The notes under the pieces: generated by a model
The model's input: only the letters and a program-made list of their open reading frames with translations
What the model was told of the DNA's origin: nothing
Databases searched by the model: none
Translations under genes and position numbers: made by a program
Assembly (NCBI RefSeq): GCF_017161425.1
Contig: NZ_CP071057.1
Coordinates: 124,001-188,000, forward strand
From: Marinicauda algicola
Lineage (GTDB): Bacteria; Pseudomonadota; Alphaproteobacteria; Caulobacterales; Maricaulaceae
Direction of reading: 5' to 3'
DNA: 64,000 bases
Shown: one piece after another, positions 14,711 to 17,445 of the stretch
Position numbering within the stretch: the stretch's first letter is position 1
Layout of the letters: every line of letters begins with the position of its first letter

Positions 14711-16123
<1,413 letters not shown>

Positions 16124-16193: not shown

Positions 16194-16278
16194 GCGCGTG
16201 TTCGTTTGTCCGCGCGTGATGGAATTCGCGCGCCGCGAGGCCTAGCCTCGCGCTTGGCGTAAAGAGAAGGAGGATTTC

Positions 16279-16746
16279 ATGGACATCAATATGGGTCTCG
16301 ACGAAGGCCAGCGCGAAACCATGGCGAAGGCCGTCACCAAGCTGCTGGCCGACACCTACGCGCTGTATTTCAAGACGCACGCCTATCACTGGAACGTGAC
16401 GGGCCCGCGTTTCCACGACCTGCACGCCATGTTCATGGAACAGTACACCGAGATGTGGCAGGCGGTGGACGATATCGCCGAGCGCGTGCGCGCGCTGGGC
16501 TTCATGGCGCCGATCTCCTACGAGGAGATGGCCAAGTCCTCCTCCATTGCCTTCGACAAGAAGACGCCGGATGCGACCACCATGGTGAAGAATCTCGTCG
16601 CCGGTCACGAGCAGGTCGTGCGAACCGCGCGCAAGGTGCTCGAACTCGCGAGCGAGCACGGCGACGAGGCGACCGCCGATCTCGTCGCGCCGCGCGTCAG
16701 CGCGCACGAGAAGACCGCCTGGATGCTGCGCGCCACGGCGGGCTGA
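16279..16746 (+). CDS. dps: Dps family ferritin-like DNA-protection protein
   Basis: 155 residues, the usual Dps length. The ferroxidase signature is present: THAYHWNVTGPRFHDLHAMF with His37 and His49, then Asp64/Glu68 in AVDDIAER. Dps forms a dodecamer that oxidises and stores iron with peroxide, protecting DNA under stress. AAGGAGG lies eight bases before the ATG. It is a single-gene transcript: a terminator precedes it and another follows immediately. A predicted small RNA is transcribed toward it from the other strand. Confidence 0.93.
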   Translation: MDINMGLDEGQRETMAKAVTKLLADTYALYFKTHAYHWNVTGPRFHDLHAMFMEQYTEMWQAVDDIAERVRALGFMAPISYEEMAKSSSIAFDKKTPDATTMVKNLVAGHEQVVRTARKVLELASEHGDEATADLVAPRVSAHEKTAWMLRATAG

Positions 16747-16772
16747 GCCCCGGCTTGGCCACGAGCGAACCG

Positions 16773-16799
16773 CGCCCCGCCGGCCCGGCGGGGCGTTTT
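16773..16799 (+). terminator. Rho-independent terminator after dps
   Basis: Stem CGCCCCGCC/GGCGGGGCG (16773-16781 and 16787-16795) followed by TTTTC. Flanking GCGAAC/GTTCGC sequences could extend the structure. Confidence 0.8.
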
Positions 16800-16816: not shown

Positions 16817-16943
16817 GAAAAGAAAAGAGCCGGCCCCGCGGTAGCGCGGTGGCCGGCTCAGTTTGGCATACCCTATCGGGGAGGAGACGGTATGCTTCAA
16901 CACGGGCGCGGCTAAAGGGGAGGAGGGGCCGCCGCCGGTGTTG
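16817..16943 (-). ncRNA. Predicted small RNA with two CUCCUCCCC loops
   Basis: On the minus strand three hairpins follow one another. The first closes with UCAACAC/GUGUUGA (16938-16944 with 16897-16903), an inner GCGGC/GCCGC stem, and loop CCCUCCUCCCCUUUA. The second is GCAUACC/GGUAUGC (16889-16895 with 16866-16872) with loop GUCUCCUCCCCGAUAG. The third is a GC-rich terminator GAGCCGGCC/GGCCGGCUC followed by UUUUCUUUUC. A promoter fits exactly upstream. Both loops share CUCCUCCCC, complementary to Shine-Dalgarno sequences, as in C-rich-loop regulatory RNAs such as Rhodobacter CcsR or Caulobacter GsrN. About 127 nucleotides. Predicted by eye; no family match was tested. Confidence 0.7.
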
Positions 16944-16948
16944 ACGCG

Positions 16949-16977
16949 TATATGCCGCCGGCCCCGCGCGATTACAA
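16949..16977 (-). promoter_or_regulatory. Predicted sigma-70 promoter of the small RNA
   Basis: Reading the minus strand: -35 TTGTAA (16972-16977), a 17-base spacer, and -10 CATATA (16949-16954). Transcription would start near 16942-16943, exactly at the base of the first hairpin. Confidence 0.6.
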
Positions 16978-17007
16978 CACACGTTCAGGAAAGCCAGTTA
17001 TGCATTT

Positions 17008-17024
17008 TTGCCGCACTGCAACAA
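17008..17024. promoter_or_regulatory. TTGC/GCAA near-palindrome, possible operator
   Basis: TTGCCGCACTGCAACAA has TTGC and GCAA arms around a six-base centre and lies about 30 bases upstream of the small-RNA -35. It resembles TGC-rich sites bound by PhaR-type regulators, but the match is from memory and not scored. It could serve the small RNA or nothing at all. Confidence 0.3.
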
Positions 17025-17094: not shown

Positions 17095-17445
17095 CTACGG
17101 TTTCCGGCAGGTCCCTTCGTAGGCCACGCTCGTGCCGGCCGAGGCCGCCTCGCAGGCATTGGGATAGGTCTCCCCGTCGCAGCCGCAGACCGGGCGGTAC
17201 TCGCGCGTGCAGACCTGAGGCCGCTCGCGGCAGATGCCGGTCTGGTCGGCCGCGCCGCACATGGCATCCCTGGGATAGGCGCAATAGGCGTTCTCGCCCG
17301 CGCAATAGAGACCCATCAGGCCGCCGCACGCCTCCCCGATCGCGCTCGCGCGGTCGGGCGGGAAGCCGGGAGCCTCGCCGGGCGGCGGGTTCTGGGGGGC
17401 ACAGGCCGCGATCAGGAGGGCGAAAAGCAGGGCGAAAAGGCGCAT
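17095..17445 (-). CDS. Lipoprotein with Kazal-type protease-inhibitor domain
   Basis: 116 residues. The signal peptide ends in the lipobox LIAAC, so the protein is anchored in the membrane after lipid attachment at Cys15. A Cys-rich middle (GLYCAGENAYCAYPRDAMC) precedes a C-terminal Kazal domain: VCTREYRPVCGCDGETY, then PNACEAA and YEGTC. Kazal domains inhibit serine proteases through a reactive loop near the second cysteine. It probably acts in the periplasm or on the cell surface. It stands alone between fmt and the small RNA. Confidence 0.82.
   Translation of the reverse strand: MRLFALLFALLIAACAPQNPPPGEAPGFPPDRASAIGEACGGLMGLYCAGENAYCAYPRDAMCGAADQTGICRERPQVCTREYRPVCGCDGETYPNACEAASAGTSVAYEGTCRKP

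What the first reader, a model, noticed from the sequence alone, without database searches (positions are those of the whole stretch)
16817..16977. Predicted small RNA with duplicated CUCCUCCCC hairpin loops beside dps
Three stems, a promoter with exact 17-base spacing that starts at the first stem, and a terminator with UUUUCUUUUC make a self-consistent gene. Both non-terminator loops expose the identical nine bases CUCCUCCCC, complementary to ribosome binding sites. C-rich-loop RNAs of this kind regulate stress genes in Rhodobacter and Caulobacter. Two copies in one RNA suggests multi-target or tandem binding, and dps has the complementary AAGGAGG site.
Basis: partly seen in the sequence, partly recalled or inferred. 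Interest (0 to 1): 0.7.

Follow-up and report, generated by a model that had tools for sequence, protein, structure and literature searches.

The report
LsrB-locus anti-ribosome-site small RNA
A marine bacterium carries a conserved small RNA gene whose two identical C-rich loops probably block ribosome binding sites of uptake and sugar-breakdown genes, and its relatives suggest that it belongs to an old gene locus (trxB, a LysR regulator, then the RNA) so far studied mainly in root-nodule bacteria and their kin.

Summary
The minus strand of 16817-16942 encodes a promoter-to-terminator small RNA with two hairpin loops exposing CUCCUCCCC. The genome is closest to Marinicauda (Maricaulaceae). The gene is conserved in the family: 31 of 137 genomes have a strong model match, 87 of 137 one at E<=0.1. 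In 29 distinct sequences 13 of 19 base pairs show two-sided compensatory changes. A GCAT(A/G) half-site lies 47-49 nt upstream of the -10 in 50 of 53 loci, where LsrB binds the S. meliloti nfeR1 promoter; in the window it matches the published VtlR box.

In many relatives the gene upstream is an LsrB/VtlR-type LysR regulator, often preceded by trxB: the gene order of the rhizobial AbcR1 locus. Behind this regulator, 22 of 29 loci from other families carry CCUCCC on its strand (opposite strand 0) and 15 weakly match the RNA model. In this genome the regulator lies elsewhere and dps remains the neighbour. I read the RNA as the Maricaulaceae form of the LsrB-activated anti-Shine-Dalgarno RNA, repressing uptake and catabolic mRNAs. 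dps is a weak target (6 bp). Rfam ar14 matches below cut-off and ar15 not at all, so membership is not claimed. Expression and targets are untested.

The parts
16817..16942 (-). small RNA gene, about 126 nt (predicted start about 16942, end in the U tract)
   Evidence: fold, conservation, covariation; ends inferred
16897..16943 (-). hairpin 1 with loop CUCCUCCCC at 16917-16925
   Evidence: same type of C-rich hairpin in L056, L059, L103, L108, L126, L127
16866..16895 (-). hairpin 2, GCAUACC...GGUAUGC, with loop CUCCUCCCC at 16878-16886; most conserved part
16817..16859 (-). intrinsic terminator: stem 16859-16827, U-rich tract 16826-16817
16949..16954 (-). -10 element CATATA
   Evidence: conserved in relatives
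16972..16977 (-). -35 element TTGTAA, 17-nt spacer
   Evidence: CTTG at this place, each base in 70-76% of 50 aligned loci
16991..17013 (-). predicted LysR (LsrB/VtlR-type) binding box: CGGC-N6-GCATA; GCATAACTGGCTT (17003-16991) matches GCAT-N3-TG-N3-T; dyad about -71 to -57 from the predicted start
   Evidence: published boxes
16279..16746 (+). dps (ferritin-like), convergent neighbour
   Evidence: Pfam Ferritin E 4.1e-28; synteny
16267..16274 (+). dps ribosome site AAGGAGGA (6 pairs with the loop)
16772..16796 (+). terminator-like site behind dps on the other strand
14915..16123 (+). class I/II aminotransferase (aspC-like) upstream of dps, part of the conserved neighbourhood
   Evidence: Pfam, synteny

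Best explanation
This is a trans-acting small RNA gene. It is the Maricaulaceae form of the RNA that follows the LysR regulator LsrB/VtlR in alphaproteobacteria (the AbcR1 locus). The regulator probably binds the GCATA box about 60-70 bases upstream of the start and activates a sigma-70-type promoter. The roughly 126-nt RNA exposes CUCCUCCCC in two stable hairpins; these pair with GGGGAGGAG-like ribosome sites and block translation of several mRNAs, among them TonB-dependent receptors, other transporters and catabolic enzymes. Two copies of one seed make the RNA redundant or able to hold two targets. Shown: sequence, structure, conservation, covariation, promoter and box position, synteny in relatives. 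Inferred: transcription, LsrB control in this species, targets, direction of regulation.
For: Fold z -7.45. R1 matches: 31 of 137 family genomes at 55 bits or more, 87 of 137 at E<=0.1. Covariation: 97.1% of cells paired, 13 of 19 pairs changed on both sides, score 0.332 against 0.098 shuffled and at most 0.103 slid (structure-fitted alignment); also in the MAFFT alignment of 11 (91.4%, 8 of 19). GCATR half-site 47-49 nt before the -10 in 50 of 53 loci; best other spacing 4 of 53. LysR gene beside the RNA; best PDB match 9hh1 E 1.7e-76, next 9.6e-31, and 9HH1 is A. tumefaciens LsrB. trxB lies before this lysR in 17 loci of the Maricaulaceae group (7 with 2-3 kb between) and 25 of 29 other-family loci. 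Behind that lysR: CCTCCC within 400 nt on its strand in 22 of 29 other-family loci, opposite strand 0, last 400 nt of lysR 2 and 1; R1 matches there in 15 of 29, 15 of 18 hits. Predicted targets.
Against: No expression data. In this genome the lysR is 1.48 Mb away. The left half of the box is degenerate here (CGGC instead of ATGC), and family boxes have one base less between the half-sites than the S. meliloti motif. The window's RNA has no ar15 match up to E 10, and the class-level model R2 does not find the window copy. RF02345 rang in 0 of 190 and 0 of 28 sampled genomes with no positive control. R1 holds a terminator, so its weak matches behind a gene may partly be drawn to any terminator. 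trxB is not before the lysR everywhere: L108, L118 and L120 have another gene there. The GGGGAGGA set could simply be genes with strong ribosome sites; no genome baseline was measured.
Confidence: 0.75

Rival explanations
1. It is a true member of the ar14 (NfeR1) family that has nothing to do with the lysR-linked locus: multi-hairpin RNA with repeated anti-Shine-Dalgarno loops.
For: Rfam ar14 aligns end to end, 33.7 bits, E 1.5e-4 in 601 bases; three hairpins with repeated CUCCUCCC as in NfeR1; NfeR1 is also LsrB-activated.
Against: Below the 58.8-bit cut-off; other C-rich places in the same genome score 35.3 and 29.9, so this score is not specific; 0 of 99 family genomes pass the cut-off, though 0 of 289 class genomes do either, so the sample held no clear positive. 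Relatives place the RNA behind trxB-lysR, the AbcR1 site.
Confidence: 0.12
2. A general-stress C-rich-loop RNA like GsrN or CcsR, driven by an alternative sigma factor.
Against: Promoter conserved as CTTG-N17-CATATA with a LysR-type box at fixed distance; no such family among the 11 matches; neighbourhood is dps/lysR/trxB, not the stress sigma locus described for most GsrN homologues (passages).
Confidence: 0.06
3. A dps-specific regulator, acting on the neighbouring dps mRNA through its ribosome site or 3' end.
For: dps within about 1.5 kb, convergent, in 21 of 30 loci L050-L079 (in L069 and L071 not directly adjacent) and in other genera; AAGGAGGA before dps.
Against: Only 6 pairs to the dps leader; the RNA persists without dps nearby in 9 of those 30 loci.
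Confidence: 0.04
4. No RNA gene: a terminator pair with chance inverted repeats.
For: GC-rich intergenic stretch; no transcript data; no promoter in the E. coli-type scan.
Against: Covariation, invariant loop, conserved promoter with rigid spacing.
Confidence: 0.03

Closest known systems
AbcR1 (ar15, RF02345), S. meliloti, A. tumefaciens, Brucella
   Same: Gene order trxB - lysR(LsrB/VtlR) - RNA in relatives; LysR box; anti-Shine-Dalgarno CUCCUCCC in the 5' hairpin loop; predicted uptake and metabolic targets
   Different: No covariance match; second motif is another CUCCUCCCC hairpin, not UUCCCCUC between stem-loops; not next to lysR in this genome; TonB receptors among predicted targets, where AbcR targets are largely ABC transporters
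NfeR1 (ar14, RF02344), S. meliloti
   Same: Anti-Shine-Dalgarno motif repeated in hairpin loops; LsrB site at -72 to -57; sigma-70 promoter with 17-nt spacer; 115-123 nt
   Different: Two, not three, C-rich loops in the window (terminator loop lacks it here, has it in other genera); score below cut-off; lysR-linked locus in relatives
SorX (RF02784), Rhodobacter
   Same: Rfam SorX matches (38.5-43.2 bits, below the 46.6 cut-off) lie right behind the lysR in 3 of 16 scanned loci, and at 24-25 bits in 3 more, at the place of the RNA described here
   Different: Window RNA itself has no SorX match; R. sphaeroides SorX comes from an ompR-1 3' UTR
SisA-D (alphaR8), Caulobacter
   Same: Anti-Shine-Dalgarno seed (UUUCCUCCCU), broad repression
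   Different: Seed in a single-stranded stretch; sisA lies by an FGase gene
GsrN, Caulobacter
   Same: C-rich loop, trans-acting
   Different: Stress-sigma promoter, other locus, activates katG

Membership tests
ar14 / NfeR1 (RF02344) | covariance score at or above the Rfam gathering score (58.8) | tested here: not met
   33.7 bits; 0 of 99 family genomes over cut-off
ar14 / NfeR1 (RF02344) | three hairpins, each with CCUCCUCCC unpaired | tested here: not met
   three hairpins, two with CUCCUCCCC; terminator loop without it in the window; with it in some other genera
ar14 / NfeR1 (RF02344) | LsrB box at about -72 to -57 | tested here: inconclusive
   GCATA box at the same distance from the inferred start; binding not tested
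AbcR1 (ar15, RF02345) | covariance match | tested here: not met
   not listed up to E 10 for the window region; 0 of 190 and 0 of 28 sampled genomes, no positive control
AbcR1 locus (trxB-vtlR/lsrB-RNA) | RNA gene directly downstream of an LsrB/VtlR-type lysR that follows trxB | tested here: met
   in relatives, trxB not in all of them; in this genome the lysR lies elsewhere
AbcR1 (ar15, RF02345) | aSD1 CUCCUCCC in the 5' hairpin loop | tested here: met
   hairpin 1 loop
AbcR1 (ar15, RF02345) | aSD2 UUCCCCUC between stem-loops 1 and 2 | tested here: not met
   the linker is only a few bases
AbcR1 (ar15, RF02345) | binds Hfq | not testable with these tools
   no experiment
SorX (RF02784) | covariance score at or above 46.6 | tested here: not met
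   window not listed; best 43.2 in the lysR loci
LsrB/VtlR regulon RNA (functional class) | transcription activated by LsrB/VtlR | not testable with these tools
   box only

The most novel reading that the evidence does not exclude
The trxB-lysR(LsrB)-anti-Shine-Dalgarno-RNA unit is an ancient, class-wide alphaproteobacterial module. AbcR1, SorX-like RNAs and the RNA of this window would be diverged copies of one ancestral gene, which in Maricaulaceae gained and lost C-rich hairpins (even in the terminator loop) and in the window's genus broke away from its regulator while keeping its binding box. LsrB would then not be unique to Rhizobiales, as stated in print.
Probability: 0.6. Interest if true: 0.6.

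Novelty: new variant of a known kind. Interest (0 to 1): 0.5.

Why it matters
It extends a regulatory unit known mainly from rhizobia, Agrobacterium and Brucella to free-living marine bacteria. It offers a natural series of one- and two-seed versions, with the second seed in hairpin 1 or in the terminator loop, so the question why anti-Shine-Dalgarno RNAs repeat one seed becomes testable by comparison. It predicts a LysR regulator (redox-responsive in Agrobacterium and Sinorhizobium) controlling TonB-dependent and sugar uptake through one RNA. It also questions the printed statement that LsrB is unique to Rhizobiales (PMC11975290, passages).

Tried and rejected
Filing under ar14: rejected as membership, since unrelated C-rich places in the same genome score as well, and one of 14 control genomes (Thermus composti) also rang below cut-off. 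ar15 covariance search in the class and in the order of G353: nothing rang, no positive control, so no conclusion. R1 in 289 class genomes: besides G000 two weak places, not followed. R1 matches in L099, L105, L112-L117, L119, L121, L122, L124 and L125 looked like terminators or unrelated places and were left out of later counts; not every weak match was looked at. The 53 loci are a hand-chosen set: also left out were L076 (flank too short), L095, L128 and L131 (weak), and second copies of the same genomes (L031-L049, L110, L111). For model R2, 12 of the 15 lysR-adjacent sequences were used (L156, L169, L170 dropped as too different). The 29 other-family lysR loci are the best-scoring ones of 167 matching genomes, not a random draw. 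dps as target: only 6 pairs. Chance figures treat related genomes as independent, and the 7-kb cluster was chosen after it was seen; they are nominal only.

Target check limits: 50 of 51 G000 places and 24 of 25 G001 places were fetched (the left-out one in each is the RNA's own opposite strand), 6 of 27 G014 places, and none of those of G125, G015 and G129 beyond the loci. Pfam was run on 30 of 37 G000 proteins and 10 of 21 G001 proteins of at least 100 aa, the G001 ones partly picked because they looked like receptors, so the receptor counts (3 of 30, 5 of 10) are not an enrichment test.

Full report
What is there. The minus strand of 16817-16942 carries two hairpins with identical loops CUCCUCCCC (16925-16917 and 16886-16878) and an intrinsic terminator ending in UUUUCUUUUC. 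The fold is far more stable than shuffles (z -7.45, 0 of 200). Upstream are TTGTAA and CATATA with 17 bases between them. The gene lies between dps (16279-16746, +) and a gene for a small Kazal-domain protein (17095-17445, -), followed by fmt.

Where. The window is G000:C1:124001-188000. G001, of the same genus, has the RNA on a contig of 782,409 bases, the length of the named Marinicauda pacifica record with the same match; that species is Maricaulaceae. A pattern for hairpin 2 found 19 stretches in a collection of 84,980 species genomes. Of these, 18 score 67-97 bits with the model and come from Maricaulaceae genera or from assemblies named only to family, order or class; the other, a Mesorhizobium, scores 18.6 bits.

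Conservation. A covariance model from 11 loci (R1) matches 87 of 137 genomes of the family at E<=0.1, 31 of them with 55 bits or more. Among 249 genomes of the order 51 match at E<=0.01, those outside the family at no more than 35.8 bits. Among 289 genomes across the class there is G000 and two weak places at E<=0.001. The loop core GUCUCCUCCCCGA is almost invariant in the strong set while the stems change together: GCAUA-UAUGC becomes CCAUA-UAUGG and CCGCG-CGCGG. In 29 distinct sequences 13 of 19 pairs have a two-sided change and 97.1% of cells pair; slid structures reach 25-42%. That alignment was fitted to the model; the MAFFT alignment of 11 gives 91.4% and 8 of 19. The number of UCCUCCC motifs per RNA is one in 34 and two in 16 of 50 loci; some genera carry the motif in the terminator loop. 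Hairpin 1 with a C-rich loop occurs in the window, M. pacifica (L056), L059 and the more distant L103, L108, L126 and L127.

Promoter. In 50 of 53 hand-chosen loci a GCATA/GCATG half-site starts 47-49 bases before the -10 hexamer; no other spacing occurs in more than 4. More distant genera show the full dyad ATGC-N6-GCAT. In the window the right half is intact (17003-16999), and GCATAACTGGCTT fits the VtlR box GCAT-N3-TG-N3-T reported for Brucella and proposed for Agrobacterium (PMC7486931, passages); 10 of 53 loci fit it exactly, 39 of 53 with the T of TG free. With the start inferred at 16942 the dyad lies at about -71 to -57. LsrB binds the nfeR1 promoter of S. meliloti at -72 to -57, motif TGCA-N6-GCAT (PMC10746234, passages); the family's boxes have one base less between the half-sites.

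Neighbourhood. In many relatives the order is aminotransferase, dps, then the RNA convergent to dps (21 of 30 loci L050-L079 have dps within about 1.5 kb). On the other side, upstream and on the RNA's strand, many loci have a LysR gene (16 of the same 30). L049 has both, and so does L118 from another family of the order. The LysR's best solved relative is 9hh1 over its whole length, E 1.7e-76, the next being 9.6e-31; 9HH1 is LsrB of A. tumefaciens (PMC11975290, passages). In A. tumefaciens the order is trxB, vtlR, abcR1, abcR2 (PMC7486931). trxB precedes this lysR on the same strand in 25 of 29 loci from other families and in 17 loci of the Maricaulaceae group, 7 of these with 2-3 kb of other genes between. 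It is not universal: L108, L118 and L120 have another gene there, and many fetched stretches end too early to tell. Where the lysR was absent from the stretch, 7 of 7 genomes tested still have one elsewhere: 11.4 kb from the RNA on the same contig in M. pacifica but 1.48 Mb away in G000. In the 3 of those 7 lysR stretches scanned (L146-L148) no RNA of this kind lies beside it.

Beyond the family. A LysR match at E<=1e-50 is present in 167 of 289 class genomes. In the 29 best-scoring loci from other families, weak R1 matches lie just downstream of the lysR on its strand in 15; 15 of all 18 hits fall there. R1 holds a terminator, so such matches could be drawn to any terminator. As a control, CCTCCC occurs within 400 bases downstream on the lysR strand in 22 of 29, on the opposite strand in 0, and in the last 400 bases of lysR in 2 and 1; 18 of 29 also have a run of Ts within 80 bases. 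Twelve aligned regions share GACGU...CCUCCCUG...ACU and a terminator. A model of them (R2) finds the RNA in 9 of 29 loci of the order among its 12 hits at E<=5, but not the window's copy. Rfam's SorX matches three of 16 scanned loci there at 38.5-43.2 bits, below its cut-off, and three more at 24-25. I take this as a class-wide locus, shown by position and weak sequence similarity, not by significant similarity of the window's own RNA.

How it probably works. AbcR1, AbcR2 and NfeR1 repress transport and metabolic mRNAs through CUCCUCCC-type seeds, and LsrB activates AbcR1 and NfeR1 (PMC8844928 and PMC10746234, passages; one study in S. meliloti 1021 saw no LsrB effect on AbcR RNAs, PMC7486931). 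In G000, GGGGAGGA-N3-10-ATG occurs 51 times against 3 for the reversed control, as expected for ribosome sites. Four of the 50 fetched lie within 7 kb and look like one alpha-glucan set: TonB receptor, MFS transporter, alpha-amylase, GH97 (L236-L239). Random placement gives such a cluster in 0.7% of trials, a test made after seeing it. A TonB receptor (L252) has an 11-base match to hairpin 2, kept in its M. pacifica counterpart L275 (77% identical). Seven predicted targets are shared by G000 and G001 (L217, L220, L225, L226, L247, L252, L256 with L267, L270, L271, L263, L284, L275, L279). dps offers only 6 pairs. Repression is inferred by analogy.

What is known. I saw no study of this RNA in Maricaulaceae in the (capped) listings; the library lacks most subscription journals. 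PMC11975290 (passages) states that LsrB is unique to Rhizobiales; PMC7486931 (passages) notes that trxB-vtlR order is conserved in the class. My data agree with the second. Other papers seen as passages only: PMC3927594, PMC5869019, PMC12559287 (also outline with abstract), PMC8625941, PMC6238624.

Weak points: no expression data, inferred ends, a degenerate left half-box in this species, no formal membership in ar14, ar15 or SorX, and no genome-wide baseline for targets.

Noticed in passing
L088 (G000:C1:2291075-2291210, +): Another intergenic array of three GC-rich hairpins with C-rich loops in the same genome, ar14 score 35.3 bits; possibly a second C-rich-loop RNA.
   Followed up: partly
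L132, L133, L142, L143 (genomes G357, G585): Up to eight CUCCUCC-type places in a row in one intergenic region, apparently tandem hairpins, ar14 scores up to 56.9 bits.
   Followed up: no
L153-L181: trxB followed by an LsrB-like lysR on the same strand in 25 of 29 loci from many alphaproteobacterial families, against the printed statement that LsrB is unique to Rhizobiales.
   Followed up: partly
L221, L222, L250 (G000): Three identical transposase genes (rve domain) with the leader GGGGAGGATATCGAATG, complementary to the RNA's loop.
   Followed up: no
L112-L115: A CCTCCCC stretch and terminator that overlap the stop codon of a gene I recall as GTP cyclohydrolase I (not searched) in several genomes of another family of the order; perhaps a 3' UTR RNA.
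   Followed up: no
L004, L007: GGAAC-N17-CGTT (EcfG consensus as recalled) lies across the RNA's promoter in two Glycocaulis-group loci.
   Followed up: no
L090-L094, L096, L098, L104, L130: In 9 of 10 loci of one genus (g10; not L097) a second GCAT(A/G) site lies 32 bases upstream of the first; it may be a second LysR site.
   Followed up: no
window 17095-17445 (-): Small lipoprotein-like protein with a Kazal protease-inhibitor domain.
   Followed up: no
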